64,000 nucleotides of DNA from Gerris lacustris (Eukaryota; Arthropoda; Insecta; Hemiptera; Gerridae): the NCBI GenBank assembly GCA_951217055.1, contig OX578277.1, positions 9,110,329 to 9,174,328 of the forward strand. The letters run 5' to 3'. The position numbers and the translations under genes were made by a program. A model generated the notes under the pieces. It was not told where the DNA came from and did no database searches. It was given only the letters and a program-made list of their open reading frames with translations. Position 1 is the first letter of the stretch; every line of letters begins with the position of its first letter. This document shows positions 2,173 through 57,859 of this stretch, piece after piece.

Positions 2173-2304
2173 TTTAAATTGTTACTCCCCTACGTTGTGT
2201 TAGAAAAAATGACTTTGACTAAATAACGATTAAGTAAAGTCCAATGTACTTTGTGACAATGGAATATCCCCCTTATGTTTTGATAAGGGGAGTAACAGTT
2301 TAAA
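2173..2304. mobile_element. Short palindromic MITE with TTTAAA-nTGTTACTCCCC ends
   Basis: The left end TTTAAATTGTTACTCCCC is matched in inverse at 2287-2304 (GGGGAGTAACAGTTTAAA). It is about 132 bp and non-coding. TTAA occurs at both outer edges, which could be a TTAA target duplication or simply part of the inverted repeat. Confidence 0.5.
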
Positions 2305-14200: not shown

Positions 14201-14400
14201 GGAGATTGAAATTGAACTGCGCACTAAAAACCCGACTTTCACCCGTTTTCAGCCTTCAAAATTTCCCCAAACGGCTTTATCCGGGTAAAACTACGGTTCT
14301 TCTCGACCGCCGTGCCGAAACCTTTGAAACGATATGTATATCGACCCGATCGGGCGACTTTCGATTTTCACCGAACCCGACCTGTCGAGCGCCGACTCCG

Positions 14401-14599
14401 TACGGGCGCCGACACTATACCGGCGCCGACACTATACCGGCGCCGACACTACACCGGCGCCAACACTGTACCGGCGCCAACACTGTACCGGCGCCAACAC
14501 TGTACCGGCGCCGACACTATACCGGCGCCAACACTATACCGGCGCCAACACTATACCGGCGCCAACACTATACGGGCGCCAACACTATACCGGCGCTGA
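14401..14599 (+). repeat. 17-bp minisatellite, about 12 copies
   Basis: The unit is CGGCGCCAACACTATAC with small variants ('gccgac', 'ctgtac', 'ctacac'). It lies directly before the terminal palindrome of unit 1. A matching array with the same unit and almost the same copy number lies at 19740-19939. Confidence 0.95.
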
Positions 14600-14602
14600 C
14601 CG

Positions 14603-14652
14603 CTAGCTGCGTCCCGTTGGCCGCCGCTTGCGGCGGCCACGGGACCAGCTAG
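14603..14652 (+). other. 50-bp near-perfect palindrome ending in CTAG (Helitron-like 3' end)
   Basis: The core stem GGCCGCCGC-TT-GCGGCGGCC is perfect. It is extended outwards by GTCCCG/CGGGAC and CTAGCTG/CAGCTAG with one or two unpaired bases. CTAG (14649-14652) is followed by T. A GC-rich hairpin about 10 nt before a terminal CTRR placed against a T is the hallmark of Helitron 3' ends. Confidence 0.6.
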
Positions 14653-17600: not shown

Positions 17601-19739
17601 TAAAATTGAATTATGAACTAGAAACTCAAATTTTACCGGGTTTTAGCCTCTAAAATTTTCCCTAATAGCTTTATCTAGATAAAACTATAGTTTTTCTTTA
17701 TCGCCTTGCCGAATCCTTTAAAATGATATATATGTCGATCTGATCGGGCGACTTTCGATTTTCACTAAAATAATCACAGGTCCCTAGCCTTGCTTTTTTT
17801 TTAGTAAAAAAAAAAAAAACTTTTTTTGGTCGACGACCCCACATGTTTTATACATGGTTGGAAAGCTAATTTTTTTTAATAGGGGAGACACTCTTGAACT
17901 TTTTTCTTCCCGATCAATATTTTCCAAGAAAAGCCCAAAAAACATCGAAATTCCCAAATTTCACTCAATCTTTGGACGCCATTATCTCGGAAAATATTGG
18001 TCAGGGAAAAAAAGTTTTGTGAGTATGACCCCCAGTGAAAAAAAAAAATCTTTCCAACCATATATAACACGTATGGGGTCGTCGACCAAAAAATTTCCCC
18101 AAATCGAGAACGGCAAAATCTGGGAAATTTCGACAAATTTTTGCAAGGTGCTCCGAATTTCCCCAAATTTGGTATGCACCCGGTGTTTGACACCACAAAA
18201 AGGATTATGAAAGAATTGTCCGGAAAAAAAATTTTTCCGGGTCCCCCCCATAATTTTGAAATTTTTATATGCCCATAAAATTTGTTTGAACGCATTTACG
18301 GGGTTCTTAAATTTTTTACGTATAGAAAGCCGTAATAAATGACGCTATACAAAAAATTAGGGTTCTAAGGCTAAAGCTTTTTGAGGAAAAAAATGTTGAA
18401 TAATTTGGGGTCAGTCTAAAATTAATAAATCCCCACTTTTTCGAGGTTCGAAGTGGCTCAACTTTTTCTTTGTATCCCGTGGAGAAAAATCTATTTGTCT
18501 TTTTTGTAGCCCGCAAATAGACCTTTAAGTCCATATAAGACACAACGCGGTCGGACCTAAAGTACGCCCACTTCGAGAGATTGAAATTGAATTACGTACT
18601 AAAAACCCAATTTTCACCCGTTCTTAGCCTCTAAAATTTCCCCAAATGGCTTTTTCCCGGAAAAGCGATAGTTTTTCTTGATCGCCTTGCCAAAACCTTT
18701 AAAATGATATATATATATCGACCCGATCGGGCGACTTTCGATTTTCAAGAAAATAATCACAGGTAAGTAGGCTGGATTTTTTTTAGGGAAAAAAAAAATT
18801 TATTTTTTGGTCGATGACCCCACATGTTTTTCACATGGTTGAAAAGCTATTTTTTTTTTAATAGGGGAGACACTCTTGAATTTTTTTCTTCCCGATCAAT
18901 ATTTTCCAAGAAAAGCCCACAAAACATGGTTTCCCGCCAAAAAGTCCCAATTTTTGATCGCCATTATCTCGGAAAATATTGGTCAGGTAAAAAAAAATTT
19001 ATGGGTATGACCCCAAGTGAAATAAAAAGACCTTTCCAACCATGTATAACACATATATGGTTGTCAACCAAAAATTTCCCCGAAATCGAGAACGGCAAAA
19101 TCTGGGAAATTTCGACAAATTTTTGCATGGTGCTCTGATTTTGACCAAATTCGATATACACCCGTTGTTTGACACCACAAAAAGGATTATGAAAGTATTT
19201 TCCGAAAAAAAAAAAATTTCCGGGCCCCCCCCCCATAATTTTGAAATTTTTATATGCCCATAAAATTTGTTTGAACGCATTCACGGGGTTAAAGCGTTAA
19301 GGTACGTGTAGAAAGCCGTAATAAATGACGCTATGCAAAAAATTAGGGTTCTAAGGCTAAAACGTTTTTGGGAAAAAATAGTTGAATAATTAGGGGTTCA
19401 CTCTAAAATTAATAAATCCACCTTTTTCCGCTCTTCGAAATGGCATATCAGTTCCCCGCATGCCGTGGAGAAAAACGCTACGGAGCTTTTTTGTAGCCCG
19501 CAAATAGACCTTTATGGCCATATAAGACACGATGCGGTCGGACCTAAAGTAGGCCCACTACGAGAGATTGAAATTGAATTACGCACTAGAAACAAAAACG
19601 TCACCCGTTTATGCCTCTAAAATTTCCCCAAATGGCTTTATAAGGGTAAAACTATAGTTTTTCTTGATCGCCTTGCCAAAACCTTTAAAGTGATATGTAT
19701 GTCGACCCGATCGGGTGACTTTCGATTTTCACGAATTTT

Positions 19740-19939
19740 ATACGGGCGCCAACCCTATACCGCCAACCCTATACCGGCGCCAACACTATGCGCGCGCCAA
19801 CACTATACCAGCGCCAACACTATACTGGCGCCAACACTATACCGGCGCCAACACTATACCGGCGCCAACACTATACGTACGCCAACACTATACCGGCGCC
19901 AACACTATACCGGCGCCAACACTATACCAGCGCCAACAG
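19740..19939 (+). repeat. 17-bp minisatellite, about 12 copies, unit 2
   Basis: Same CGGCGCCAACACTATAC unit as at 14401-14599, here nearly always with 'CCAAC' rather than 'CCGAC', plus a few decayed units at the left end. Confidence 0.95.
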
Positions 19940-19989
19940 CTGGCTGAGTTCCGCTGGCCGCCGCTTGCGGCGGCCACGGGACCAGCTAG
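19940..19989 (+). other. 50-bp palindrome ending in CTAG, unit 2
   Basis: Same length and core stem (GGCCGCCGC-TT-GCGGCGGCC) as the palindrome at 14603-14652, with CTGGCTG instead of CTAGCTG on the left arm. CTAG (19986-19989) is followed by T, after which the sequence returns at once to AT-rich DNA. This marks a sharp element boundary. Confidence 0.6.
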
Positions 19990-21579
19990 TTTGACCTAAT
20001 TCGTATTTAAATTGACTAAATTTGAGATTTTTTATTTAACGTGTAAATCTATCAAAGTAAAATTTTTTCGTTGTCACAAAACCTTTTTATTACTATGTAT
20101 TGAATTCTTGTATTCTACATACATGAAAATGCAAAAATAAATGGTACAAATAAAAATATACGTAAAAATTACAATCATAATGGGCAAGAGACACAAAAAA
20201 ATCTAAAATAAGGGTAAAAAATGGTAAATCAAGAGAGCTCTTTGAACAAAAGTATTATAAAATGGGATGACCTGACGTATTATTACTGCGTTCTATGTTA
20301 AGATCTCTCTTTAGTAAACTAGTGAAATTTTACTAAGGACATCACTCCGGCTGGTAACACTGCGCTACCTCAGACAAAGAACAGGTTTTTTTTACTATCC
20401 CCTCACCCCAGATCCAGAATCCAGATCCTTCCAAGAGAACTTTTTTAGTATGCGAACGACTCTCGTCTGGAGTAGATCGCGCGTTACGGCTTTCCAATGG
20501 ATTTCAACACATTTTGATCATTTTAAAAATTTAATATTTAAAATCAATTTACGCATTTATAATGTTTTAAGTATAAACTAAATAGTCAATAACATTAAAA
20601 AAAAGTGCAACTCTTAAAACAAGAATATAGTTTGCTTTTTAAAAAAATACGTCATATATATATTTAAAATATACAATTGGACAAATATTTTTTTTAAAAA
20701 ATCGTGGCGTAGATCAATTCCTGACATATAAACGAACATAACGATGCTGTGATTTTATTTTATTTATTTGTTAAGTTTTATATTTTTCAAACTTTTTATT
20801 TTATAAAAGTGCGTAATTTAACCTAATTAATTTTAAGAGTTTTTGTTATTTCTTTGCAATAACATTCTAAATATTGTATGATATTTTCGCTTCGCTAAAA
20901 AATATTTGTCTCTAGTTTTTTTAAAATTATTAATTGAGCCTGAGGAAAGAAATGTACGAAAAAATGAAGACTATGAGGAATTATTGTTATTTTTTTCTCA
21001 TCCTCGTTTTATATGTAAGTAAATATTTATTTTTATTAGATTTTGATTTAAATAATATAATATTCTTATAATTTATATGATGACAATACGTTGAAGTTAT
21101 TGCCAATTCAGTAAAGGTTAAATTATCCGAAATTTTATTGAACACATATTATAAGTTTTCAGTTTTTATGTTGTTTCTTTTACGTGTTGATCAACACATG
21201 ATATGGATATTACAGGAAATTCGCTCACTTTACACATCTGTTCGAGATAATAAAACAGAGAAAATTTTGGTTCCCTTATCTGCCTTTCTGACTGTCCGTT
21301 TAACATTTTTGAGCCGATATATATTAAAAACGATTTATCCGATTTTAATTAAATTTAGATTGTACACCCATAACACTGTTATGCAAAATTTAATGAACTT
21401 TCAGGCTCCAAGGAAATTTTATCTGACTTTTATGTTTTTGAGGTTGCTGAATCCGAATCTGAAGTCAAAATTTATCCTCTACGTACAGTTTTCCCGGAAA
21501 ATGCGCCTAACGTTCGGAAAAATTGTGTTTTTGGGGGTTTTCGACCCAATTGTCCTTTGTTGTAAAACAAAAAATGAGA
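19990..21579. other. AT-rich DNA without a recognised gene
   Basis: A possible short signal-peptide-like exon at 20952-21014 is described under findings. The open frame from 21138 runs into a phrase-type repeat and is not credited. Confidence 0.4.
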
Positions 21580-33441: not shown

Positions 33442-33450
33442 GGTCATACA
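33442..33450 (+). repeat. 9-bp target-site duplication, left copy (ggtcataca)
   Basis: Identical to 47210-47218, immediately outside the inverted termini of the 33451-47209 element. Nine bp is the length produced by foldback and Mutator-like transposases. Confidence 0.8.
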
Positions 33451-36400
33451 ATGGCCGTTAACTTGGAGTGCACCATCGGCCAAATTGACCCAAACAGGTC
33501 CCAAAGTTTTGCACTAGTTTTGCGACGTTTTGCGACGTCGAGTTTGAGTTTTGCGACGGCTTCCTTATCGCGATTAATCGCAAGTCAAAAGTGCACTCCA
33601 AGTTAACGCTGGAGTGCACCATCGGTCGATTTCAACCAAAAAGGTCTCAAAGTTTTGCACTAGTTTTGCGACGTTTTGCGACGTTGAGTTTGAGTTTTGC
33701 GACGGTTCACAAACGTCGCAAATTCCATATTTCATTAAAAAATTTAAGGTGCACTCTAAGTTAACGCTGGAGTGCACCATCGGCCGAATTGACCCAAACC
33801 GGTCCCAAAGTTTTGCACTAGTTTTGCGACGTTTTGCGACGTCGAGTTTGAGTTTTGCGACGGCTTCCTAATCGCGATTAATCACAAGTCAAATAAGTAA
33901 ACCACGTTAACTCTGGAGTGCACCATCCGAATTAACCCAAACCGATCCCAAAGTTTTGTAATAATTTTGCGACGTTTTGCGACGTTAAGTTTGAGTTTTG
34001 CGACGGTTCACAAACGTCGCAAATTCCATATTTCATTAAAAAATTTAAGGTGCACTCTAAGTTAACGCTGGAGTGCACCATCGGCCGAATTGACCCAAAC
34101 CGGTCCCAAAGTTTTGCACTAGTTTTGCGACGTCGAGTTTGAGTTTTGCGACGGCTTCCTAATCGCGATTAATCACAAGTCAAATAAGTAAACCACGTTA
34201 ACTCTGGAGTGCACCATCCGAATTGACCCAAACCGGTCCCAAAGTTTTGCACTAGTTTTGCGACGTCGAGTTTGAGTTTTGCGACGGCTTCCTAATCGCG
34301 ATTAATCACAAGTCAAATAAGTAAACCACGTTAACTCTGGAGTGCACCATCCGAATTGACCCAAACCGGTCCCAAAGTTTTGCACTAGTTTTGCGACGTT
34401 GTGCGACGTCGAGTTTGAGTTTTGCGACGGCTTCCTTATCGCGATTAATCACAAGTCAAATAAGTAAACCACGTTATCTCTGGAGTGCACCATCCGAATT
34501 GACCCAAACCGGTCCCAAAGTTTTGCACTAGTTTTGCGACGTTTTGCGACGTCGAGTTTGAGTTTTGCGACGGCTTCCTAATCGCGATTAATCATAAGTC
34601 AAATAAGTAAACCACGTTAACTCTGGAGTGCACCATCCGAATTGACCCAAACCGGTCCCAAAGTTTTGCACTAGTTTTGCGACGTTTTGCGACGTCGAGT
34701 TTGAGTTTTGCGACGGCTTCCTTATCGCGATTAATCGCAAGTCAAAAGTGCACTCCAAGTTAACGCTGGAGTGCACCATCGGTCGATTTCAACCAAAAAG
34801 GTCTCAAAGTTTTGCACTAGTTTTGCGACGTTTTGCGACGTTGAGTTTGAGTTTTGCGACAGTTCACAAACGTCGCAAATTCCATATTTCATTAAAAAAT
34901 TTAAGGTGCACTCTAAGTTAACGCTGGAGTGCACCATCGGCCGAATTGACCCAAACCGGTCCCAAAGTTTTGCACTAGTTTTGCGACGTTTTGCGACGTC
35001 GAGTTTGAGTTTTGCGACGGCTTCCTAATCGCGATTAATCACAAGTCAAATAAGTAAACCACGTTAACTCTGGAGTGCACCATCCGAATTGACCCAAACC
35101 GGTCCCAAAGTTTTGCACTAGTTTTGCAACGTTTTGCGACGTCGAGTTTGAGTTTTGCGACGGCTTCCTTATCGCGATTAATCATAAGTCAAATAAGTAA
35201 ACCACGTTAACTCTGGAGTGCACCATCCGAATTGACCCAAATAGGTCCCAAAGTTTTGCAAAAGATTTGCGACGTTTTGCGACGTCGAGTTTGAGTTTTG
35301 CGACGGTTTCCTTATCGCGATTAATCACAAGTCAAATAAGTAAACCACGTTAACTCTGGAGTGCACCATCCGAATTAACCCAAACCGATCCCAAAGTTTT
35401 GTAATAATTTTGCGACGTTTTGCGACGTTAAGTTTGAGTTTTGCGACGGTTCACAAACGTCGCAAATTCCATATTTCATTAAAAAATTTAAGGTGCACTC
35501 TAAGTTAACGCTGGAGTGCACCATCGGCCGAATTGACCCAAACCGGTCCCAAAGTTTTGCACTAGTTTTGCGACGTCGAGTTTGAGTTTTGCGACGGCTT
35601 CCTAATCGCGATTAATCACAAGTCAAATAAGTAAACCACGTTAACTCTGGAGTGCACCATCCGAATTGACCCAAACCGGTCCCAAAGTTTTGCACTAGTT
35701 TTGCGACGTCGAGTTTGAGTTTTGCGACGGCTTCCTAATCGCGATTAATCACAAGTCAAATAAGTAAACCACGTTAACTCTGGAGTGCACCATCCGAATT
35801 GACCCAAACCGGTCCCAAAGTTTTGCACTAGTTTTGCGACGTTGTGCGACGTCGAGTTTGAGTTTTGCGACGGCTTCCTTATCGCGATTAATCACAAGTC
35901 AAATAAGTAAACCACGTTATCTCTGGAGTGCACCATCCGAATTGACCCAAACCGGTCCCAAAGTTTTGCACTAGTTTTGCGACGTTTTGCGACGTCGAGT
36001 TTGAGTTTTGCGACGGCTTCCTAATCGCGATTAATCACAAGTCAAATAAGTAAACCACGTTAACTCTGGAGTGCACCATCCGAATTGACCCAAACCGGTC
36101 CCAAAGTTTTGCACTAGTTTTGCGACGTTTTGCGACGTCGAGTTTGAGTTTTGCGACGGCTTCCTTATCGCGATTAATCGCAAGTCAAAAGTGCACTCCA
36201 AGTTAACGCTGGAGTGCACCATCGGTCGATTTCAACCAAAAAGGTCTCAAAGTTTTGCACTAGTTTTGCGACGTTTTGCGACGTTGAGTTTGAGTTTTGC
36301 GACAGTTCACAAACGTCGCAAATTCCATATTTCATTAAAAAATTTAAGGTGCACTCTAAGTTAACGCTGGAGTGCACCATCGGCCGAATTGACCCAAACC

Positions 36401-38906
36401 GGTCCCAAAGTTTTGCACTAGTTTTGCGACGTTTTGCGACGTCGAGTTTGAGTTTTGCGACGGCTTCCTAATCGCGATTAATCACAAGTCAAATAAGTAA
36501 ACCACGTTAACTCTGGAGTGCACCATCCGAATTGACCCAAACCGGTCCCAAAGTTTTGCACTAGTTTTGCAACGTTTTGCGACGTCGAGTTTGAGTTTTG
36601 CGACGGCTTCCTTATCGCGATTAATCATAAGTCAAATAAGTAAACCACGTTAACTCTGGAGTGCACCATCCGAATTGACCCAAATAGGTCCCAAAGTTTT
36701 GCAAAAGATTTGCGACGTTTTGCGACGTCGAGTTTGAGTTTTGCGACGGTTTCCTTATCGCGATTAATCACAAGTCAAATAAGTAAACCACGTTATCTCT
36801 GGAGTGCACCATCCGAATTGACCCAAACCGGTCCCAAAGTTTTGCACTAGTTTTGCGACGTTTAGCGACGTCGAGTTTGAGTTTTGCGACGGCTTCCTTA
36901 TCGCGATTAATCACAAGCCAAATAAGTAAACCACGTTAGCTCTGGAGTGCACCATCCGAATTTACCCAAACCGGTCCCAAAGTTTTGCACTAGTTTTGCA
37001 ACGTTTTGCGACGTCGAGTTTGAGTTTTGCGACGGCTTCCTTATCGCGATTAATCACAAGTCAAATAAGTAAACCAAGTTAACTCTGGAGTGCACCATCT
37101 GATTTGACCCAAAAAGAGCCCAAAGTTCTGCACTAGTTTCGCAACGTAATGCGACGTCGAGTTTGAGTTTTGCGACGGCTTCCCTATCGCGATTAATCAC
37201 AAGTCAAATAAGTAAACCGAGTTAACTCTGGAGTGCACCATCGGCCAAATTGACCCAAACAGGACCCAAAGTTTTGCACTAGTTTTGCGACGTCGAGTTT
37301 GAGTTTTACGACGGCTTCCTTATCGCGATTAATCGCAAGTCAAAAGTGCACTCCAAGTTAACGCTGGAGTGCACCATCGGTCGATTTCAACCAAAAAGGT
37401 CTCAAAGTTTTGCACTAGTTTTGCGACGTTTTGCGACGTTGAGTTTGAGTTTTGCGACGGTTCACAAACGTCGCAAATTCCATATTTCATTAAAAAATTG
37501 TAAGGTGCACTCTAAGTTAACGCTGGAGTGCACCATCGGCCGAATTGACCCAAACAGGTCCCAAAGTTTTGCACTAGTTTTGCGACGTTTTGCGACGTCG
37601 AGTTTGAGTTTTGCGACGGCTTCCTTATTGCGATTAATCACAAGTCAAATAACTAAACCAAGTTAACTCTGGAGTGCACCATCCGATTTGACCCAAACAG
37701 GTCCCAAAGTTTTGCACTAGTTTTGCAACGTAATGCGACGTCGAGTTTGAGTTTTGCGACGGCTCCCTTATTGCGATTAATCACAAGTCAAATAACTAAA
37801 CCAAGTTAACTTTGGAGTGCACCATCTGATTTGACCCAAAAAGGTCCCAAAGTTCTGCACTAGTTTCGCAACGTAATGCGACGTCGAGTTTGAGTTTTGC
37901 GACGGCTTCCTTATCGCGATTAATCACAAGTCAAATAAGTAAACCATGTTAACTCTGGAGTGCACCATCTGATTTGACCCAAAAAGGTCCCAAAGTTCTG
38001 CACTAGTTTTGCAACGTAATGCGACGTCGAGTTTGAGTTTTGCGACGGCTTCCTTATCGCGATTAATCACAAGTCAAATAAGTAAACCGAGTTAACTCTG
38101 GAGTTCACCATCCGATTTGACCCAAACAGGTCCCAAAGTTTTGCACTAGTTTTGCAACGTAATGCGACGTCGAGTTTGAGTTTTGCGACGGCTTCCTTAT
38201 TGCGATTAATCACAAGTCAAATAACTAAACCAAGTTAACTCTGGAGTGCACCATCTGATTTGACCCAAAAAGGTCCCAAAGTTCTGCACTAGTTTAGCAA
38301 CGTAATGCGACGTCGAGTTTGAGTTTTGCGACGGCTTCCTTATTGCGATTAATCACAAGTCAAATAACTAAACCAAGTTAACTCTGGAGTGCACCATCTG
38401 GTTTGACCCAAAAAGGTCCCAAAGTTCTGCACTAGTTTCGCAACGTAATGTGACGTCGAGTTTGAGTTTTGCGACGGCTTCCTTATCGCGATTAATCACA
38501 AGTCAAATAAGTAAACCAAGTTAACTCTGGAGTGCACCATCTGATTTGACCCAAAAAGGTCCCAAAGTTCTGCACTAGTTTTGCAACGTAATGCGACGTC
38601 GAGTTTGAGTTTTGCGACGGCTTCCTTATCGCGATTAATCACAAGTCAAATAAGTAAACCGAGTTAACTCTGGAGTGCACCATCCGATTTGACCCAAACA
38701 GGTCCCAAAGTTTTGCACTAGTTTTGCAACGTAATGCGACGTCGAGTTTGAGTTTTGCGACGGCTTCCTTATCGCGATTAATTACAAGTCAAATAAGTAA
38801 ACCGAGTTAACTCTGGAGTGCACCATCCGATTTGACCCAAACAGGTCCCAAAGTTTTGCACTAGAGTTGCGACATTGAGTTTGATTGACGGCTCACAAAC
38901 GTTCCA
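33451..38906 (+). repeat. Left arm: satellite array, 143-bp monomers
   Basis: The monomer runs from 'ggagtgcaccatccgaattg' through 'cccaaagttttgcactag', two or three 'ttttgcgacg' decamers, 'tatcgcgattaatcacaagt' and 'aaccacgttaactct'. Loss of one decamer gives 133-bp units. A second monomer type of about 158 bp (e.g. from 33611) replaces the end with 'tcacaaacgtcgcaaattcc' and 'tttcattaaaaaatttaagg', and carries an inner inverted pair ggtgcactc/gagtgcacc. Units after about 37080 share 'cgcaacgtaatgcgacg' variants. All open frames here are satellite artefacts. Confidence 0.95.
33900..36785 (+). repeat. Higher-order duplication of 1,443 bp within the left arm
   Basis: About 33900-35342 and 35343-36785 are tandem, near-identical blocks of ten monomers. 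Unusual monomers recur exactly 1,443 bp apart ('ttttgtaataattttgcgac' at about 33954 and 35397; the 158-bp type at 34771 and 36214). Confidence 0.85.
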
Positions 38907-39298
38907 TTTTAAATGTTTATGTTTAAAAATGCCATTTTAAACACGATATTGCAAAACTGGACAACACTCAAATGCTTTAAAGAATTTGAGCAAATTGTTT
39001 GCTTTAATTTAAATTATTTTCATAAATTGCAATTTGGCTTGGCTAGTTTTGCGACGACAAGTATGAATTTTGCGAGTCACATATACTATATGCTTATTAA
39101 CAGCCTTTTGTCAAATAATATATTTATATTTATATAAATATACAAGATATATATAATTGAGAAGCCGGCTCTCTCGGCTTTACCTCAGAAATCAAATAAA
39201 TAAATGTTCTCCACTCAGCATACAAACACTTACTTTTTTCCCCTTGGACTATTACTTTTTTCTTTATTTAGTAGCATAAAAAGACTTGAAACATCCTT

Positions 39299-39914
39299 AA
39301 AAAAATCGGTCCGAGACAACTCAGACAGACATTCTCATATTCGAGTTTATAATTACTTAGCCCAGTGTTTCCATTTATTAGTTTTCAAATGTACATTTAA
39401 GTATTATTTATTATTTTATCAAAATTCATCAAAAATAAATTCTCCTTGGCGGGGAATCGAACCCGGGCTCTCTCCGTCCGTGTTTAAAGCTAATATCTCA
39501 GGAACTAGATTTTTCCCGGGAAAACGGCGTATATCGTTTGTCCGTATTTAAATGGATTACATTTTAGAATTTTTTAATCAAAATCGTCGGAACCGTTTTC
39601 GAGAAATATTTTTTTCACGTTTTTTCGGAGTTTTTGGGGGGTAGCGCCCCCAAATTTGGTGCTAAAATTCATTTATCGATTTCGCCTCGGGGTATGATTT
39701 TTCTGAACATGTATGCCAAATTTCGTCAAAATCAGCCCAGTAGTTAAGGCTCCAGGCGTCTGCACAGACGACAGACGACAGTCGACGGACAGACATATTT
39801 TAAAAACCACATTTTTGGACTCAGGGGACCTCAAAACGTGTAAATCCATCAAAATCTCAAAATCGAATTTTCTCGCCATCACAATACTTTCCCTTTATAT
39901 GAGAAAGTAAAAAA
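39299..39914 (-). repeat. Interspersed repeat carrying the empty site of the CACTA element
   Basis: Read on the minus strand it begins with a hairpin-like start (ACTTTCTC...GAAAGT) and continues through 'gatggatttacacgttttga', which is the uninterrupted target. It then passes through 'acatgtatgccaaatttcgt' in inverse and ends near a tRNA B-box-like GGTTCGATTCCCCGCC. It matches 48056-48135 joined to 59782-60330, and its start matches 63945-64000. Confidence 0.8.
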
Positions 39915-40399
39915 ACTGTATGAGCTCTATTTCAATAATTCTATAAAATGCTTAAAAAATCTTAAATATCAATATCTCAAGAATTATTGAGAATAGGACC
40001 CATGTTTACATGACATTTTCTCTTGCAAATGACCCATAGAATACGTCAGATTTTTTATGACTATTATTCCTTATTTTGGGTGGCCCTGTTTTTTTTTTTT
40101 TTTTTGTTTTTTTCTTGGCTCGCTTCATTAGTCAATTAATAGTAATCAAACTTAAAAACACTTTTCACAGTATAATAGTATATTTGTAATAAATATTGTA
40201 TAATAAACAGTAACAGCAAAGTATACTGTACAATTTATAAAGGTAAATATTACTTTTTGCTTACTTAAGGCAAACGATCTTAAATTAACAATATGTGTAT
40301 ATTATATTGTTATCAAATATTTTATCTATTATCTAATATTCGAAGTCTAATAATCTTGCTTTCTAATAGCTAATTTATTTCTTCAAACTGATAAGGGGC

Positions 40400-41050
40400 A
40401 AGTCTAAGAACAGTGTGTTACACCGTGGTTCTTAGAAGACATCGGCCGCTTTCATCCCTTCTGCTCCCTTTTTCTACCTCCCCACTTATTAAATCTATCA
40501 TATTTATGGCGAATTTTTTTTTGCGTTTTGTTTTACTTTTGTGGGGGGTTAAATGGCCACTATTTTGGACACTCGATATTATTTGTGAACCAAATATCAA
40601 TATTTTTAAAATGATACCCAACTTCGAATTTTCTAATTTTGGGGCTCCATAGTTACGGCCCCCTAAAATTTCTAAAATTTGACTTTTTATAGATCAACTC
40701 CCGGAAATTATATTGGACCACAGAGATAGATATATATTTTACATTTTGGAAACGCGATACATATTTGTAATCTACATTTCAATACCTTTGAAATGATAGC
40801 CAACTTGAAAATTACAAAAAATATAAAATATTGTGATCTATTCGCAATTGATCGCAGATCGCAGAAATTTGGAGTGTTCAAGTCCGCAAGAGTTTTTCTG
40901 TTTTTGGGAAAAAAAGTATAACTTGTATATCAAAGTTCAAGTCTATAGCTTCCGTAGATCGAGAGATACACTCCAAGATAAGACGGACGAACGAACTACC
41001 AAAAGCATAAGAGTTTATATTTCTAGGGCGACCTCGAAACCCTAAAAATG
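40400..41050. repeat. Phrase-type repeat in the foldback core
   Basis: Begins with a hairpin (gtctaagaac...gttcttagaagac, about 40399-40440). It includes two similar halves ('gaaccaaatatcaatattttta' and 'atctacatttcaataccttt', each followed by 'aaatgata.ccaactt') and ends with 'aagacggacgaacgaac'. Non-coding. Confidence 0.45.
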
Positions 41051-41173
41051 AGATGGTTTAAAATGAATTCACTCTATTGTTAACTAAACAAGATAAATAC
41101 GCTTTGGGCATTATAATACGCAATTAATACAACACTATTAAGATTTAAATGATATGATTGAGATGATGAAATA

Positions 41174-44100
41174 AGTCAAATCGGATGGTGCTCTCCAGAG
41201 TTAACTCGGTTTACTTATTTAACTTGTGATTAATCGCAATAAGGAAGCCGTCGCAAAACTCAAACTCGACGTCGCAAAACGTTGAAAAACAAGTGCAAAA
41301 CTTTGGGACCTCTTTGGGTCAAATCGCATGGTGCACTCCAGAGTTAACTCGGTTTATTTATTTGACTTGTGATTAATCGCGATAAGGAAGCCGTCGCAAA
41401 ACTTAAACTCGACGTCGCATTACGTTGTAAAACTAATGTAAAACTTTGGGACCTGTTTGGGTCAATTCGGCCAATGGTGCACTCCAGCGTTAACTTAGAG
41501 TGCACCTTTAATTTTTTTAATGAAATATGGAATTTGCGACGTTTGTGAACCGTCGCAAAACTCAAACTCAACGTCGCAAAACGTCGCAAAACTAGTGCAA
41601 AACTTTGAAACCTATTTGGGTCAATTCGGGTGGTGCACTTCAGAGATAACGTGGTTTACTTATTTGACTTGTGATTAATCGCGATAAGGAAGCCGTCGCA
41701 AAACTCAAACTCGACGTCGCAAAACGTTGAAAAACAAGTGCAAAACTTTGGGACCGGTTTGGGTAAATTCGGATGGTGCACTCCAGAGTTAACGTGGTTT
41801 ACTTATTTGACTTGTGATTAATCGCGATAAGGAAGCCGTCGCAAAACTCAAACTCGACGTCGCAAAATGTCGCAAAACTAGTGCAAAACTTTGGGACCGG
41901 TTTGGGTAAATTCTGATGGTGCACTCCAGAGTTAACGTGGTTTACTTATTTGACTTGTGATTAATCGCGATAAGTAAGCCGTCGCAAAACTCAAACTTGA
42001 CGTCTCAATTCGACGCTAAACTAGTGCAAAACTTTGTGACCTATTTGGGTCAATTAGGATGGTGCACTCCAGAGATAACGTGGTTTACTTATTTGACTTG
42101 TGATTAATCGCGATAAGGAAGCCGTCGCAAAACTCAAACTCGAAATCGCAAAACGTCGCAAAACTAGTGCAAAACTTTGGGACCAGTTTGGGTAAATTCG
42201 GATGGTGCACTCCAGAGATAACGTAGTTTACTTATTTGACTTGTGATTAATCGCGATAAGGAAGCCGTCGCAAAACTCAAACTCGACGTCACAAAACGTC
42301 GCAAAACTAGTGCAAAACTTTGGAACCGGTTTGGGTCAATTCGGCCGATGGTGCACTCCAGCGTTAACTTAGAGTGCACCTTTAATTTTTTAATGAAATA
42401 TGGAATTTGCGACGTTTGTGAACCGTCGCAAAACTCAAACTCAACGTCGCAAAACGTCGCAAAACTAGTGCAAAACTTTGGGACCGGTTTGGGTCAATTC
42501 GGATAGTGCACTCCAGAGTTAACGTGGTTTACATATTTGACTTGTGATTAATCGCGATAAGTAAGCCGTCGCAAAACTTAAACTTGACGTCTCAATTCGA
42601 CGCTAAACTAGTGCAAAACTTTGTGACCTATTTGGGTCAATTAGGATGGTGCACTCCAGAGATAACGTGGTTTACTTATTTGACTTGTGATTAATCGCGA
42701 TAAGGAAGCCGTCGCAAAACTAAAACTCGACGTCTCAATTCGACGCAAAACTAGTGCAAAACTTTGGGACCAGTTTGGGTAAATTCGGATGGTGCACTCC
42801 AGAGATAACGTGGTTTACTTATTTGACTTGTGATTAATCGCGATAAGAAAGCCGTCGCAAAACTCAAACTCAACGTCGCAATATTTCGCAAAACTAGTGC
42901 AAAGCTTTGGGACCTATTTGGGTAAATTCGGATGGTGCACTCCAGAGTTAACGTGGTTTACCTATTTGACTTGTGATTAATCGCGATAAGGAAGCCATCG
43001 CAAAACTAAAACTCGACGTCGCAAAACTAGTGCAAAACTTTGGAACCGGTTTGGGTAAATTCGGATGGTGCACTCCAGAGATAACGTGGTTTACTTATTT
43101 GACTTGTGATTAATCGCGATAAGGAAGCCGTCGCAAAACTCAAACTCGACGTCGCAAAACTAGTGCAAAACTTTGGGACCGGTGTGGGTCAATTCGGATG
43201 GTGCACTCCAGAGTTAACGTGGTTTACTTAATTGACTTATGATTAATCGCGATAAGGAAGCCGTCGCAAAACTAAAACTCGACGTCTCAATTCGACGCAA
43301 AACTAGTGCAAAACTTTGGGACCAGTTTGGGTATATTCGGATGGTGCACTTCAGAGATAACGTGGTTTACTTATTTGACTTGTGATTAATCGCGATAAGA
43401 AAGCCGTCGCAAAACTCAAACTCGACGTCGCAAAATGTCGCAAAACTAGTGCTAAACTTTGGGACCGGTTTGGGTAAATTCGGATGGTGCACTCCAGAGA
43501 TAACGTGGTTTACTTATTTGACTTGTGATTAATCGCGATAAGGAAGCCGTCGCAAAACTCAAACTCGACGTCGCAAAACTAGTGCAAAACTTTGGGACCG
43601 GTGTGGGTCAATTCGGATGGTGCACTCCAGAGTTAACGTGGTTTACTTAATTGACTTATGATTAATCGCGATAAGGAAGCCGTCGCAAAACTAAAACTCG
43701 ACGTCTCAATTCGACGCAAAACTAGTGCAAAACTTTGGGACCAGTTTGGGTAAATTCGGATGGTGCACTTCAGAGATAACGTGGTTTACTTAATTGACTT
43801 ACGATTAATCGCGATAAGGAAGCCGTCGCAAAACTAAAACTCGACGTCTCAATTCGACACAAAACTAGTGCAAAATTTTGGGACCGGTTTGGGTCAATTC
43901 GGATGGTGCACTCCAGAGTTAACGTGGTTTACTTATTTGACTTGTGATTAATCGCGATTAGGAAGCCGTCGCAAAACTCAAACTCACCGTCGCAAAACGT
44001 CGCAAAACTATTGCAAAGCTTTGGGACCTATTTGGGTAAATTCGGATGGTGCACTCCAGAGTTAACGTGGTTTACCTATTTGACTTGTGATTAATCGCGA

Positions 44101-47100
44101 TAAGAAAGCCGTCACAAAACTAAAACTCGACGTCTCAATTCGACGCAAAACTAGTGCAAAACTTTGGGACCAGTTTGGGTAAATTCGGATGGTGCACTCC
44201 AGAGATAACGTGGTTTACTTATTTGACTTGTGATTAATCGCGATAAGGAAGCTGTCGCAAAACTCAAACTCGACGTCGCAAAACTAGTGCAAAACTTTGG
44301 GACCGGTGTGGGTCAATTCGGATGGTGCACTCCAGAGTTAACGTGGTTTACTTAATTGACTTATGATTAATCGCGATAAGGAAGCCATCGCAAAACTAAA
44401 ACTCGACGTCTCAATTCGACGCAAAACTAGTGCAAAACTCTGGGACCAGTTTGGGTAAATTCGGATGGTGCACTCCAGAGATAACGTGGTTTACTTATTT
44501 GACTTGTGATTAATCGCGATAAGGAAGCCGTCGCAAAACTAAAACTCGACGTCTCAATTCGACGCAAAACTAGTGCAAAACTTTGGGACCAGTTTGGGTA
44601 AATTCGGATGGTGCACTCCAGAGATAACGTGGTTTACTTATTTGACTTGTGATTAATCGCGATAAGAAAGCCGTCGCAAAACTCAAACTCGACGTCACAA
44701 AACGTCGCAAAACTAGTGCAAAACTTTGGGACCGGTGTGGGTCAATTCGGATGGTGCACTCCAGAGTTAACGTGGTTTACTTAATTGACTTACGATTAAT
44801 CGCGATAAGGAAGCCGTCGCAAAACTAAAACTCGACGTCTCAATTCGACGCAAAACTAGTGCAAAACTTTGGGACCAGTTTGGGTCAATTCGGATGGTGC
44901 ACTCCAGAGTTAACGTGGTTTACTTAATTGACTTACGATTAATCGCGATAAGGAAGCCGTCGCAAAACTAAAACTCGACGTCTCAATTCGACGCAAAACT
45001 AGTGCAAAATTTTGGGACCGGTTTGGGTCAATTCGGATGGTGCACTCCAGAGTTAACGTGGTTTACTTATTTGACTTGTGATTAATCGCGATTAGGAAGC
45101 CGTCGCAAAACTCAAACTCACCGTCGCAAAACGTCGCAAAACTAGTGCAAAACTTTGGGACCAGTTTGGGTAAATTCGGATGGTGCACTCCAGAGATAAC
45201 GTGGTTTACTTATTTGACTTGTGACTAATCGCGATAAGGAAGCCATCGCAAAACTAAAACTCGACGTCGCAATATTTCGCAAAACTAGTGCAAAGCTTTG
45301 GGACCTATTTGGGTAAATTTGGATGGTGCACTCCAGAGTTAACGTGGTTTACTTATTTGTCTTGTGATTAATCGCGATAAGGAAGCCGTCGCAAAACTCA
45401 AACTCGACGTCGCAAAACTAGTGCAAAACTTTGAAACCGGTTTGGGTAAATTCGGATGGTGCACTCCAGAGATAACGTGGTTTACTTATTTGACTTGTGA
45501 TTAATCGCGATAAGGAAGCTGTCGCAAAACTCAAACTCGACGTCGCAAAACTAGTGCAAAACTTTGGGACCGGTGTGGGTCAATTCGGATGGTGCACTCC
45601 AGAGTTAACGTGGTTTACTTAATTGACTTATGATTAATCGCGATAAGGAAGCCATCGCAAAACTAAAACTCGACGTCACAAAACGTCGCAAAACTAGTGC
45701 AAAACTTTGGGACCGGTGTGGGTCAATTCGGATGGTGCACTCCAGAGTTAACGTGGTTTACTTAATTGACTTACGATTAATCGCGATAAGGAAGCCGTCG
45801 CAAAACTAAAACTCGACGTCTCAATTCGACGCAAAACTAGTGCAAAACTTTGGGACCGGTTTGGGTCAATTCGGATGGTGCACTGCAGAGTTAACGTGGT
45901 TTACTTAATTGACTTACGATTAATCGCGATAAGGAAGCCGTCGCAAAACTAAAACTCGACGTCTCAATTCGACGCAAAACTAGTGCAAAACTTTGGGACC
46001 GGTTTGGGTCAATTCGGATGGTGCACTCCAGAGTTAACGTGGTTTACTTAATTGACTTACGATTAATCGCGATAAGGAAGCCGTCGCAAAACTAAGACTC
46101 GACGTCTCAATTCGACGCAAAACTAGTGCAAAACTTTGGGACCGGTTTGGGTCAATTCGGATGGTGCACTCCAGAGTTAACGTGGTTTACTTATTTGACT
46201 TGTGATTAATCGCGATTAGGAAGCCGTCGCAAAACTCAAACTCGACGTCGCAAAACGTCGCAAAACTATTGCAAAACTTTGGGACCGGTTTGGGTCAAAT
46301 CGGATGGTGCACTCCAGAGATAACTTGGTTTCGTTATTTGACTTGTGATTAATCGCAATAAGGAAGCCGTCGCAAAACTCAAACTCAACGTCGCAATATT
46401 TCGCAAAACTAGTGCAAAGCTTTGGGACCTATTTGGGTAAATTCGGATGGTGCACTCCAGAGATAACGTGGTTTACCTATTTGACTTGTGATTAATCGCG
46501 ATAATTAAGCCGTCGCAAAACTAAAACTCGACGTCTCAATTCGACGCAAAACTAGTGCAAAACTTTGGGACCGGTTTGGGTCAATTCGGATGGTGCACTC
46601 CAGAGTTAACGTGGTTTACTTATTTGACTTGTGATTAATCGCGATTAGGAAGCCGTCGCAAAACTCAAACTCGACGTCGCAAAACGTCGCAAAACTATTG
46701 CAAAACTTTGGGACCGGTTTGGGTCAAATCGGATGGTGCACTCCAGAGATAACTTGGTTTCGTTATTTGACTTGTGATTAATCGCAATAAGGAAGCCGTC
46801 GCAAAACTCAAACTCGACGTCGCAAAACGTCGCAAAACTAGTGCAAAACTTTGGGACCTGTTTGGGTCAATTCGGCCGATGGTGCACTCCAGCGTTAACT
46901 TAGAGTGCACCTTACAATTTTTTAATGAAATATGGAATTTGCGACGTTTGTGAACCGTCGCAAAACTCAAACTCAACGTCGCAAAACGTCGCAAAACTAG
47001 TGCAAAACTTTGGGACCTTTTTGGTTGAAATCGACCGATGGTGCACTCCAGCGTTAACTTGGAGTGCACTTTTGACTTGCGATTAATCGCGATAAGGAAG

Positions 47101-47209
47101 CCGTCGCAAAACTCAAACTCGACGTCGCAAAACGTCGCAAAACTAGTGCAAAACTTTGGGACCGGTTTGGGTCAATTTGGCCGATGGTGCACTCCAAGTT
47201 AACGGCCAT
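41174..47209 (-). repeat. Right arm: inverted satellite array, 143-bp monomers
   Basis: The same monomers as the left arm on the opposite strand. 158-bp-type monomers occur near 41480, 42350 and 46880-47060. A variant specific to this arm, with 'gacgtctcaattcgacgc' in place of the decamer pair, is spread through about 42000-46560, so the two arms have diverged and homogenised separately. The last about 370 bp mirror the first part of the left arm most closely. Confidence 0.95.
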
Positions 47210-47218
47210 GGTCATACA
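47210..47218 (+). repeat. 9-bp target-site duplication, right copy (ggtcataca)
   Basis: Perfect copy of 33442-33450, in direct orientation, directly after the GGCCAT terminus. Confidence 0.8.
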
Positions 47219-47269: not shown

Positions 47270-47720
47270 TGATTGTTTTTACTAAGCTTTTGTTAGAACT
47301 TATACTCATAGTGAATAAACACTCAAAGAGTAAACTAAGTTAGTTGTTTCTACTGAGATTTTGTAGAACTTACTCATAGTGAATAAACACTCAAAGAGTA
47401 AAGTAAGTTTGTTGTTTCTACTGAGATTTAGTTAGAACTTACTCATAGTGAATAAACACTCAAAGAGTAAACTAAGTTAGTTGTTTCTCCTGAGACTTTG
47501 TTAGAACTTACTCATAGTGAATAAACACTCAAAGAGTAAACTAAGTTAGTTGTTTCTACTGAGATTTTGTTAGAACTTACTCATAGTGAATAAACACTCA
47601 AAGAGTAAACTAAGTTAGTTGTTTCTCCTGAGATTTTGTTAGAACTTACTCATAGTGAATAAACACTCAAAGATTAAACTAAGTTAGTTGTTTTAACCGA
47701 GATTTATGTAGAACGTACAG
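47270..47720 (+). repeat. Tandem repeat, about 6.5 units of about 70 bp
   Basis: 'agaacttactcatagtgaat' + 'aaacactcaaagagtaaact' + 'aagttagttgtttct' repeats with few changes; the edge units are decayed. An isolated inverse monomer lies at 8690-8750. It lies just outside the foldback element. Confidence 0.95.
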
Positions 47721-48055: not shown

Positions 48056-48135
48056 TCGGTTTTTTACTTTCTCATATAAAGAGAAAGTATTGTGATGACG
48101 CGAAAATTCGATTTTGAGATTTTGATGGATTTACA
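48056..48135 (+). repeat. Left part of the repeat split by the CACTA element
   Basis: 'tttttactttctcatataaa' + 'gagaaagtattgtgatgac' and onward to 'gatggatttaca' matches the inverse of 39836-39914. It is cut at CA (48134-48135) by the element and resumes at 59782 with CACGTTTTGAGG. Confidence 0.85.
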
Positions 48136-48163
48136 CACTGAGAGAAAAAAAGGACTTTTTTCG

Positions 48164-50671: not shown

Positions 50672-53155
50672 CTAATCTATGGAATTTCTAAAAACCACAT
50701 ATATTTTCCCATTGGGCAATGAACACATTAGATTTGGGAAGATGAAGCATGTATCCTGAAGTCTATAGGACATGTCGAGTCTCCCTTCCTCGACTTCATA
50801 GGCAAAGAAGTGATCATCAAAGTCAATCGTAAACATTTCTTTTCCGGTTAAAAAAATATTTTGGGTCTTACTATCTATGTAAATATGTTCAATATAAAAG
50901 AATTTGGGCAAATTAAATCGTTCTTCATCCAAGCCAATGCAAATAAGTTGGTTTGGTCGGTACACTATACCTTCCAACTCCACACTAACGACACCATATA
51001 GGGTGTTACAGGATGGCAATTTAAATTTTGTTTTTAGGGCGCACAACAGAGAGGGACATAATTTGTGATATTTGGCCGGTTTAAATGTATCAGGGAGTGT
51101 ATTAGCCAGGAGCATGTCGTTTAACTGCAATTGATGACGCACGCTAATGGTTTTTGTTATATTTATCCTATTGCCTGTGGCTCGAGCAGCCACTTTAAGT
51201 ATTCTATGTTTTGCCTCAAACCTCATAGACCACAAAGGTCTCAAAGGGCCAAATTTTTTTAACATTGAAGGATAATGTATCAAGTTGTGAAATTTCGGTT
51301 GTAACCTATCACGACAAGATAATTTCAAGTACAGTTTATTGAAATCACTTACATATTGAGCCAGGTTCTCAGGAAAGTAGGGAGACACGGCATCCGTCAT
51401 ACAAGTGGACATTATTCGCCTCAAAAGCAAAAACAAAGCCCAATATTTATTGCCCAATGGGATTTTTGTTCCTACAAATAGTGAGAAATACCTAAGGAAT
51501 GTCAAGCATTCTGCTGATGACATTCTCCATTTTATTCCACCAGATTGCCAGACCAAAGGTTGAGGCTTTGAGCCTGAATCTGGGCCATAATCAAACAAAA
51601 CGATGTGATCGTTCAAGTAATTCAAAGAGAATAGTTTATCTCTTATTAAAGAATTTATCACAAGGGTCATAACATATTGACAAACACCTTCCAATAAATC
51701 ATGCATAATATCTACAGCTACATGTTGAAATAACTTAAAACCTTTGACTTTTAACCAGACACACCTTTCCTTAATGCCCGTAGCTGAAACGTTATCACTT
51801 TGCAAGTCCTCATTGTAATTTTCCATATTTCTAAGAAAATCTGATTTCTCACGCGTAAGCTTAGCTAGCTTACGTTTGCCTCCTTTACATATCCGGCAGT
51901 AATGAGAGGCGCTAAAACTTTCGGTAAAGCCCAGGATCGAGTTTAATCCCAAATTATCTCCGGTTATACAAGCTAATCTGAATTTAACAGTGCCAGTGAA
52001 ACTGTCAACAGCAATTTCTACTCCAGTATTAGCTAAATAATTTAGCTCGTCTATTACACTTGCAAATATTTTCTCGTTACCTTTGGAAACAGCCCTATCC
52101 GAGGAATGAAACAGAAGACCCAAGAATATATAGTTAAGCTTGGAAGCATATTTTGGCGGAATGCAAGGCATGGATACGTACACTGCTCCCAACTTGTGAA
52201 TGGATGAGTGACTACCAAGGGGATTTGATGTTTCAAAATCGTCAAAATAAAGTGTAAGAGGGTATAACTTCTCATTTGCATTTAAATGATGGTTTGAGTA
52301 CGTTTTCTGCCATGCACTACCTTGAATTATATTCATCGGGAAAGGGAAGTTTTGGCAAAAATTTATGTAACTATCAATTTCTTTTAAAAGACCAGGAATT
52401 GATAAAACCTTTTTAAAAACATTTCTCAATGGAACAAAGGAAGCAAAACAAGGCCCAAGTTTAGTTGTACCACCTCGTCCGGCCACTGGACGATTCATTA
52501 TAAATTTCTGTTTTGGGGGAATGTAAGTTCCAATATTAGTGTAAAAATTAAGTCGGAGGTGTTGACTGCGGAAAGTTTCATTGCACTGTGTTATGGATCC
52601 TAATAAAGTTTCAGTGAATGGCCCTAAGTGATTACAAGTGCCATCTCTAGCACTGTCTTCTGCAAATCGATTTAACACAAAACAAAACGAGTCTTTCATA
52701 TATTCTTCATACCTATTATAAAATAACTGAATGTAATTAAGGGGTATTTGTGGGTTGGCCTGTAGCTTGCTAAACATCTTAGCAGCTGTATCTAAAAATA
52801 TTTTTTTTAAATTTTCGGGCGAAAAATCAAAGCGTAAGTTTTCCCCATTAACCGTCTCATCTTGTGAGATATTTATTTCTGAGTCTTTAATACCTTCTCC
52901 TACCTCGTTCCCATTCCTTTCACAGACCACGTTGTTTAAAGAGGGCGCGACACCACTTGGAGAAGTGGCACAATGTTCAGACTTTAAATGATAACGCAAG
53001 GTATACAAGCTGCCACATACTCTGTAGCAGCCTGGCTCGCCACAGCGCAACGAAAGATTGTCCCCTGGTGAAAAGTCAAGGTGCATACGTTTGATATGAA
53101 CTATAAGATCGCTTACAGATTTGAATCTATGTTTACAATCGTGGCACGATAGCAT
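50672..53155 (-). CDS. CACTA/CMC-like DDE transposase with two C2H2 zinc fingers
   Basis: A single open frame of 827 residues, likely the enzyme that cuts and joins the element ends in the nucleus. Two C2H2 fingers open it (residues 4-25, CxxC-x12-HxxxxH, and 38-61, Cx4C-x12-HxxxxH), probably for DNA binding. The catalytic part shows YFDDFETSNPLG (303-314), ITGDNLG (397-403), a CxxC knuckle (420-423), IMHDLLEGV (483-491) and KFHNLIHYP...LWSMRFEAKH (621-650). These are the blocks of CMC-type transposases ('DDFE.NPLG', 'GD', 'MHD..EG', 'RFE..H'). D305 or D306, D400 and E647 are my candidates for the DDE triad; that assignment is inference. The start Met directly precedes the first finger. It lies 34 bp after the stop of the upstream second gene, on the same strand. 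Confidence 0.88.
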   Translation of the reverse strand: MLSCHDCKHRFKSVSDLIVHIKRMHLDFSPGDNLSLRCGEPGCYRVCGSLYTLRYHLKSEHCATSPSGVAPSLNNVVCERNGNEVGEGIKDSEINISQDETVNGENLRFDFSPENLKKIFLDTAAKMFSKLQANPQIPLNYIQLFYNRYEEYMKDSFCFVLNRFAEDSARDGTCNHLGPFTETLLGSITQCNETFRSQHLRLNFYTNIGTYIPPKQKFIMNRPVAGRGGTTKLGPCFASFVPLRNVFKKVLSIPGLLKEIDSYINFCQNFPFPMNIIQGSAWQKTYSNHHLNANEKLYPLTLYFDDFETSNPLGSHSSIHKLGAVYVSMPCIPPKYASKLNYIFLGLLFHSSDRAVSKGNEKIFASVIDELNYLANTGVEIAVDSFTGTVKFRLACITGDNLGLNSILGFTESFSASHYCRICKGGKRKLAKLTREKSDFLRNMENYNEDLQSDNVSATGIKERCVWLKVKGFKLFQHVAVDIMHDLLEGVCQYVMTLVINSLIRDKLFSLNYLNDHIVLFDYGPDSGSKPQPLVWQSGGIKWRMSSAECLTFLRYFSLFVGTKIPLGNKYWALFLLLRRIMSTCMTDAVSPYFPENLAQYVSDFNKLYLKLSCRDRLQPKFHNLIHYPSMLKKFGPLRPLWSMRFEAKHRILKVAARATGNRINITKTISVRHQLQLNDMLLANTLPDTFKPAKYHKLCPSLLCALKTKFKLPSCNTLYGVVSVELEGIVYRPNQLICIGLDEERFNLPKFFYIEHIYIDSKTQNIFLTGKEMFTIDFDDHFFAYEVEEGRLDMSYRLQDTCFIFPNLMCSLPNGKIYVVFRNSID

Positions 53156-53189
53156 GATGACAGTTGTTACAATGTTGTTTCCTTACGCA

Positions 53190-57859
<4,670 letters not shown>

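What the first reader, a model, noticed from the sequence alone, without database searches (positions are those of the whole stretch)
33442..47218. A 13.8 kb foldback/Mutator-like element whose inverted arms are satellite DNA
Two opposite satellite arrays would normally be filed as heterochromatin. Here the outermost about 60 bp of the two arms are inverted copies with one difference, and a perfect 9-bp direct repeat (ggtcataca) touches both ends, so the whole was apparently inserted as one unit. Known foldback elements have arms of a few hundred bp to a few kb; arms of 5.5 and 6.0 kb with 143-bp monomers are unusually large. It suggests a route by which a transposon spreads, or gives birth to, a satellite.
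Basis: partly seen in the sequence, partly recalled or inferred. Interest (0 to 1): 0.88.

Follow-up and report, generated by a model that had tools for sequence, protein, structure and literature searches.

The report
Giant foldback transposons with satellite arms
A 13.8-kb stretch of an insect chromosome, built mostly of two mirror-image arrays of a 143-base repeat, is a mobile element that jumped in as one piece, and relatives between 5 and 82 kb long sit at dozens of other places in the same genome.

Summary
The element is window 33451-47209 (13,759 bp), flanked by a perfect 9-bp duplication; its outermost 294 bp are inverted copies with 2 differences. A second copy on another contig has the same 20-bp ends, its own 9-bp duplication and a 98%-identical core. 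A sister family shares 19 bp of the end and has 146-bp monomers, about 75-79% identical to the window's. Of 32 facing outer end pairs in both families, 26 have exact 9-bp duplications and 3 more match at 8 of 9; sizes are 5.4-81.9 kb. One sister insertion has a paralogous empty site. Samples from the 71- and 82-kb copies all match smaller copies, mostly their tandem repeats (20 of 20). I read these as non-autonomous foldback-type DNA transposons. 'Mutator-like' rests on the 9-bp duplication and long arms: no transposase was seen in the sequence examined, and none of 35 MULE matches lies within 0.5 Mb of a listed end. Satellite-armed foldbacks are known (Tetris, Rehavkus-1_TC); the scale, internal ends and giant tandem-repeat interiors are the new part. 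Birth of a free satellite is not shown.

The parts
33442..33450 (+). left copy of the 9-bp target site duplication ggtcataca
33451..38876 (+). left arm: 37 complete monomer intervals of 133-159 bp (consensus 143), starting ATGGCCGTTAACTTGGAGTGCACC
33451..33744 (+). left terminal 294 bp, inverted copy of 46916-47209 with 2 differences
33902..35344 (+). ten-monomer block (monomers 4-13), nearly identical to the next block
   Evidence: monomer list; best-match spacing of 10
35345..36788 (+). second copy of the ten-monomer block (monomers 14-23): internal tandem duplication of about 1.44 kb
37217..37352 (+). monomer 27, which carries CGGCCAAATTGACC as the outermost monomer does and groups with the terminal monomers in the tree: a possible former end buried by array growth outside it (inference)
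38877..41174 (.). core, about 2.3 kb, 98% identical to the core of the C8 copy; longest frame 115 aa; 10 of 14 frames of 50 aa or more scanned, no Pfam match above cut-off
39300..39914 (.). dispersed repeat inside the core; relatives at 60325-59782 (91.6%) and 48060-48136 (96%)
41175..47209 (-). right arm: 42 complete monomer intervals in the opposite orientation
46916..47209 (-). right terminal 294 bp
47210..47218 (+). right copy of the 9-bp target site duplication

Best explanation
The feature is a non-autonomous DNA transposon of the foldback type. Its two inverted arms are tandem arrays of a 143-bp monomer around a 2.3-kb core without recognisable genes. A transposase supplied from elsewhere recognises the end ATGGCCGTTAACTTGGAGT and inserts the whole with a 9-bp staggered cut (inferred from the duplications; enzyme not found). 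Every monomer segmented begins with a degenerate copy of that end, so the arms are multimerised ends that could bind transposase along their length (inferred). Arms grow and shrink by tandem duplication and exchange between repeats (outcome shown, mechanism inferred). In the sister family the same end design carries interiors that are largely short tandem repeats, and some copies contain extra internal ends like a composite transposon. Because six copies of one end class, 28-71 kb long, sit at six different target sites, I infer that units of tens of kb moved as such and that some arrays changed length afterwards.
For: Perfect duplication and 294-bp inverted ends. Second copy of the same type at another site with duplication TTGGTGAGA and a 98%-identical core. 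26 of 32 outer pairs exact at 9 bp, 3 at 8 of 9; with right ends re-dealt 2000 times among the 31 pairs, no wrong pair reached 8 of 9. Paralogous empty site with a single target copy, one base different. 119 of 119 monomers hold the 23-bp end sequence within 5 edits; 200 shuffles of one 45-bp flanking stretch never came closer than 8. Block duplication in the left arm. 30 and 5 monomer anchors in the two arms of one sister copy. 20 of 20 400-base samples from the 71- and 82-kb copies match the five sister copies fetched: 18 tandem-repeat interior, 1 arm, 1 core.
Against: No transposase domain found: 10 core frames and 10 frames from four sister copies' loci were scanned with Pfam; only reverse-transcriptase fragments and one FP-domain frame appeared. 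Not every frame of the fetched copies was scanned, and most of the 32 interiors were not read. The nearest of 35 PF10551 matches is 541 kb from any of 95 listed ends. 3 of 32 pairs share no clear duplication: C1:18073126 (7 of 9), C11:60276355 (6 of 9, counted by eye), C5:39180814 (5 of 9). 11 of the 95 ends have no partner listed. The C8 copy needs two later insertions (a LINE and a hAT-like element) to explain its form. Matches among short-period repeats are easier to obtain than matches of unique DNA.
Confidence: 0.88

Rival explanations
1. Ordinary satellite array split by an inversion, or heterochromatin, with the 9-bp match a coincidence.
For: Monomers are satellite-like.
Against: 26 of 32 outer pairs with exact 9-bp duplications and no wrong pair at 8 of 9 on re-dealing; the same ends at unrelated sites; empty site.
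Confidence: 0.01
2. The elements transposed while small, and the 28-82-kb size is array growth at each site after insertion.
For: Arrays change length: ten-monomer duplication; the samples of the 71-kb copy run in roughly inverse order to the 35-kb copy, with one repeat block much longer.
Against: Six copies of one end class (C2:45.70M, C3:47.53M, C4:38.32M, C5:34.39M, C5:44.76M, C10:24.18M) measure 28-71 kb with six different duplications, four of them 33-41 kb. Independent growth to a similar size is unlikely. Of the six interiors only C2:45.70M was read whole and C3:47.53M sampled.
Confidence: 0.25
3. Assembly artefact: a tandem array wrongly mirrored.
For: Long arrays are error-prone; no reads were available.
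Against: Most monomers of each arm are closest to others of the same arm (32 of 37 left, 28 of 42 right), a non-repeated core lies between the arms, and many loci show the same design with different duplications.
Confidence: 0.02
4. A Rehavkus-type element proper: mobilised by a PHD-finger transposase of that group present in this genome.
For: 9-bp duplications and tandem repeats near or in the inverted termini are reported for Rehavkus.
Against: No Rehavkus transposase was identified. 7 of the 35 MULE-domain frames were scanned and none showed a PHD finger. No Rehavkus sequence was at hand for comparison.
Confidence: 0.25

Closest known systems
Tetris (Drosophila virilis foldback transposon; PMC4079207, parts 1-2 of 6 of the text read)
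   Same: Foldback form, arms with tandem repeats (about 220 bp), 8-10-bp duplications, no apparent coding capacity, arm repeats also found in longer arrays.
   Different: Arms up to 1,735 bp there, against 5.4-6.0 kb here. Three structurally complete copies reported there. Here the outer end is itself a monomer, and sister copies reach 71-82 kb with tandem-repeat interiors.
Rehavkus-1_TC with satellite TCsat23 (Tribolium castaneum; PMC10218199, passages; Rehavkus features PMC6446971, passages)
   Same: [quoted passage not shown] Rehavkus has 9-bp duplications.
   Different: The cited table gives Rehavkus one ORF with a PHD finger; no transposase was found here. Fewer monomers per arm than in the window element.
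Tm1 (root-knot nematodes; PMC3169594, abstract and passages)
   Same: Composite inverted repeats of variable repeat number; 45 of 53 complete elements there have 8-10-bp, most often 9-bp, duplications; likened to foldback elements by its authors.
   Different: 13-15-bp repeats; the elements whose length I saw are 1.1 and 2.6 kb; members encoding a transposase are known.
Drosophila FB elements and Ising's composite TE (PMC6431247, passages; FB details recalled)
   Same: Large segments moved between two foldback elements; FB arms made of tandem repeats (recalled).
   Different: FB repeats are short (recalled). Here some copies have internal ends with constant flanks and tandem-repeat interiors.
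Arthropod MULEs with a transposase (PMC13359780, passages)
   Same: Insect MULEs, some with long terminal inverted repeats.
   Different: TIRs there 13-1193 bp by the text (one table row gives up to 1527 bp for Hemiptera) and complete elements up to about 10 kb.
MULEs with multiple long TIRs in plants (PMC3310237, search listing only)
   Same: More than two terminal-repeat units per element, by the title.
   Different: Not compared in detail.

Membership tests
Foldback (FB-like) transposon | long inverted arms built largely of tandem repeats of variable number | tested here: met
Foldback (FB-like) transposon | target site duplication flanking many independent copies | tested here: met
   26 of 32 exact, 3 at 8 of 9
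Mutator-like (MULE) superfamily | 8-11-bp duplications | tested here: met
   range from PMC6446971
Mutator-like (MULE) superfamily | MULE-type DDE transposase carried by, or acting on, these ends | tested here: inconclusive
   35 PF10551 matches, nearest 541 kb from any of 95 listed ends; none seen in the frames scanned; an enzyme acting in trans cannot be excluded
Rehavkus | PHD-finger transposase | tested here: inconclusive
   not found in 7 of 35 MULE frames scanned; no Rehavkus reference sequence at hand
Rehavkus | 9-bp duplication and tandem repeats in or beside the terminal repeats | tested here: met
   against PMC6446971 and PMC10218199
Satellite DNA | long free arrays outside the transposon | tested here: inconclusive
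   247 matches, 40 of 138 candidates scored, part of the matches listed; besides facing pairs, one-sided arrays appear (e.g. C1:10415064-10417120, C10:29401492-29402448; sister type C1:117606827-117614669)

The most novel reading that the evidence does not exclude
Satellite arrays can travel as whole cut-and-paste transposons of 30-80 kb. In this genome the transposase end itself has been multimerised into satellite monomers, so array and transposon are the same thing, and the elements enlarge between jumps until most of their length is tandem repeat.
Probability: 0.4. Interest if true: 0.85.

Novelty: new variant of a known kind. Interest (0 to 1): 0.7.

Why it matters
How satellite DNA disperses between chromosomes, and whether transposons seed it, is a long-standing question. 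Here one genome holds 29 insertions marked by 9-bp duplications (26 exact, 3 at 8 of 9), from compact (5.4 kb) to giant (71-82 kb), so array growth, loss and movement can be compared copy by copy. The giant copies also bear on how large a DNA transposon can be: a review notes that DNA transposition becomes markedly less effective above 6 kb of cargo (PMC6431247, passage).

Tried and rejected
Chance match of the 9-bp repeat: rejected. Split satellite or inversion: rejected. Coding core: of 14 core frames of 50 aa or more, 10 were scanned; 3 gave weak Pfam hits (E 0.014-0.061), all below cut-off. Coding sister copies: 10 frames scanned, giving two reverse-transcriptase fragments and one Baculo_FP_2nd frame, no transposase. 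MULE genes near the ends: none of 35 within 0.5 Mb. Monomer motif in viral contigs: 0. Rfam and tRNA scans of the window: 0.

Rows dropped from the pair census: of the 95 ends used, 17 are internal-type, 3 are outer ends whose partner is not listed or is of the internal type (C3:20856645, C3:55971582, C9:35577687) and 11 are unpaired; 5 of the 6 two-mismatch places listed were not followed.

Full report
Where it is. The window is C2:9110329-9174328 of a 937-Mb assembly in 69 contigs. The host is probably a true bug (Hemiptera, Heteroptera). The best hit of the splicing factor YJU2 encoded at 6081-7082 is an unnamed protein (75%); the best named relatives are Lygus (61%), Nezara (63%), Halyomorpha (62%) and Ranatra (87% over 61% of the length).

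The observation. Two arrays of a 143-bp unit lie in opposite orientation at 33758-38873 and 41175-47204. GGTCATACA occurs twice in the window, touching positions 33451 and 47209 from outside. Two random 9-mers of the flanking DNA agree with probability 6e-5.

Anatomy. The left arm has 37 complete monomer intervals and the right arm 42. All 119 monomers segmented from both arms here and from the C8 copy contain the 23-bp end sequence within 5 edits; 200 shuffles of one 45-bp flanking stretch never came closer than 8. At 24 of 115 neighbouring junctions a 17-bp piece of the end also occurs in reverse within 1 edit, forming a dyad. Inside the left arm a ten-monomer block of about 1.44 kb is repeated (monomers 4-13 and 14-23). 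Each of the 17 monomers segmented from the C8 right arm has its best left-arm match among monomers 28-37, 15 of the 17 at 96% or more. Monomer 27, just outside that stretch, carries a sequence typical of the outermost monomer and groups with the terminal monomers in the tree, with weak support of 0.76. This looks like an older end buried under later growth (inference).

A second copy of the same type. The exact 20-bp end occurs four times in the genome: twice in the window and at C8:6148254(+) and C8:6163223(-). The C8 element is 14,970 bp and flanked by TTGGTGAGA on both sides. Its core matches the window core at 98.0% over 2,253 columns plus 98.2% over 110. Between these two matches the C8 copy holds a 2.3-kb insertion with ends CAGGGCCGG and CCGGCCCTG and an 8-bp repeat TCTTGTTT, which is hAT-like (label from memory). 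Its right terminal monomer is split by a LINE with a 26-base poly-A tail and a 927-aa frame with a reverse-transcriptase look (the label is from memory, not from a family search).

A large sister family. Allowing 3 mismatches gave 82 forward and 82 reverse hits, against 35 and 28 for the control pattern; the 100 places listed are 4 exact, 90 with one and 6 with two mismatches. The one-mismatch form ATGGCCGTTAACTTGGAGTA belongs to elements with 146-bp monomers. The 20 best window or C8 monomers are 77-79% identical to them over 106-138 bp, and one search gives about 75%. I used 95 of the 100 ends: 64 form 32 facing outer pairs, 17 are internal-type, 3 are outer ends of incomplete elements and 11 are unpaired. 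Of the 32 pairs, 26 have identical 9-bp duplications, 3 match at 8 of 9, and 3 do not clearly match. With right ends re-dealt among the 31 pairs, no wrong pair reached 8 of 9. Sizes of those 31 are 5,409-81,852 bp, median 21.8 kb, 702 kb in all.

Empty site. The 10.7-kb copy at C1:9229595 sits in DNA that is also present, without the element, inside the 35-kb copy at C2:45698387. Joined flanks with one target copy align through the site (756 of 852 columns, 89%), and the empty site holds a single ATAAGGAAT against the duplicated ATAAGAAAT. This supports insertion with a 9-bp duplication.

Giant and composite copies. By TRF 78% of the 36.2 kb fetched for the 35-kb copy is tandem repeat, chiefly 6-, 9-, 12- and 16-bp units between short 146-bp arms; for the 27-kb copy it is 50% of 28.5 kb. 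Twenty 400-base samples across the 71-kb (C3:47.53M, exact duplication) and 82-kb (C4:57.18M, 8 of 9) copies all match the five sister copies fetched: 18 tandem-repeat interior, 1 arm, 1 core. The matches of the 71-kb copy run in roughly inverse order to the 35-kb copy, with one repeat block much longer. Six copies of one end class (one end ACAACATCG, the other ACATCATCG; C2:45.70M, C3:47.53M, C4:38.32M, C5:34.39M, C5:44.76M, C10:24.18M) measure 28-71 kb at six sites with six different duplications. I infer that units of tens of kb moved as such. The 17 internal ends have one of two flanks...GAAGAAGTGG (10) or ...GGTTTCATC (7), with small changes, so these copies probably descend from one composite ancestor in which extra ends became internal.

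What moves them. Frames were listed for the window core, both C8 loci and the loci of five sister copies, for two of these loci only the stretch outside the arms. Apart from frames made of tandem repeats and the LINE in C8, the longest in a sister copy is 259 aa. Pfam scans of 10 core frames and 10 frames from sister loci found reverse-transcriptase fragments in the 27-kb copy and a Baculo_FP_2nd domain in the 10.7-kb copy, but no transposase. The genome has 35 PF10551 (MULE) matches, several with long open frames, but the nearest is 541 kb from any of the 95 listed ends. Seven of those 35 were scanned: all have the MULE domain, some weak C2H2 or FAR1 matches, none PHD. The enzyme is therefore unknown; MULE or Rehavkus type is the best guess from the 9-bp duplications.

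Comparison. Tetris, Rehavkus-1_TC with TCsat23, Tm1 and Ising's FB-flanked TE already show foldback arms with tandem repeats, satellites in inverted termini and large composite units. In a survey of arthropod MULEs the terminal repeats are far shorter (passages). Eight paper searches (some listed only part of their hits, and timed out) showed no title or abstract start describing satellite-armed foldback elements of this size. Subscription papers and Repbase are not covered. I rate the family a new variant of a known kind.

Limits. Further window-type arrays were not tested for duplications. Copy counts are lower bounds. Free satellite arrays were not demonstrated.

Noticed in passing
window 6072-7085 (-): Uninterrupted reading frame for the splicing factor YJU2 (PF04502, E 3.4e-108); used to place the host among true bugs.
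   Followed up: yes
window 50672-53182, 53190-53705 and 54660-55484 (-): Long open frames (836, 171 and 274 aa) of a probable other transposon; only a sub-threshold Transposase_21 match in the first.
   Followed up: partly
window 11363-19991: Several blocks of 0.3-1.6 kb duplicated at roughly 70-90% identity, with a 17-bp minisatellite (TACCGGCGCCAACACTA) at 14401 and again at 19739.
   Followed up: no
window 47273-47718 and 8664-8760: A 69-bp tandem repeat starts about 55 bp right of the element's right duplication; an inverted relative of the unit lies at 8664-8760.
   Followed up: no
window 1666-2181 (-): A frame that by eye resembles the end of the LINE frame inserted in the C8 copy; no Pfam match at E 0.001.
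   Followed up: no
C1:32250297 / C1:32256910 and C2:70003996 / C2:70007509: Two pairs of long MULE-transposase frames (about 850 and 790 aa) in opposite orientation 6.6 and 3.5 kb apart, as if in palindromic elements.
   Followed up: partly
L033 (C2:24781001-24791000), 8354-8725 (-): A 123-aa frame containing MSGKKKPSGMFYRKCKAE inside the 27-kb copy might be a captured gene fragment; no Pfam match at E 0.1.
   Followed up: partly
L040 (C1:9229001-9239000), 6294-7073 (+): A 259-aa frame with a Baculo_FP_2nd domain (E 1.7e-10) inside the 10.7-kb sister copy; probably part of another inserted element.
   Followed up: partly
window 39440-39475: The core holds a stretch (cttggcggggaatcgaacccggg) that reads by eye like the B box of a tRNA-derived SINE on the minus strand; ARAGORN finds no tRNA in the window.
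   Followed up: no
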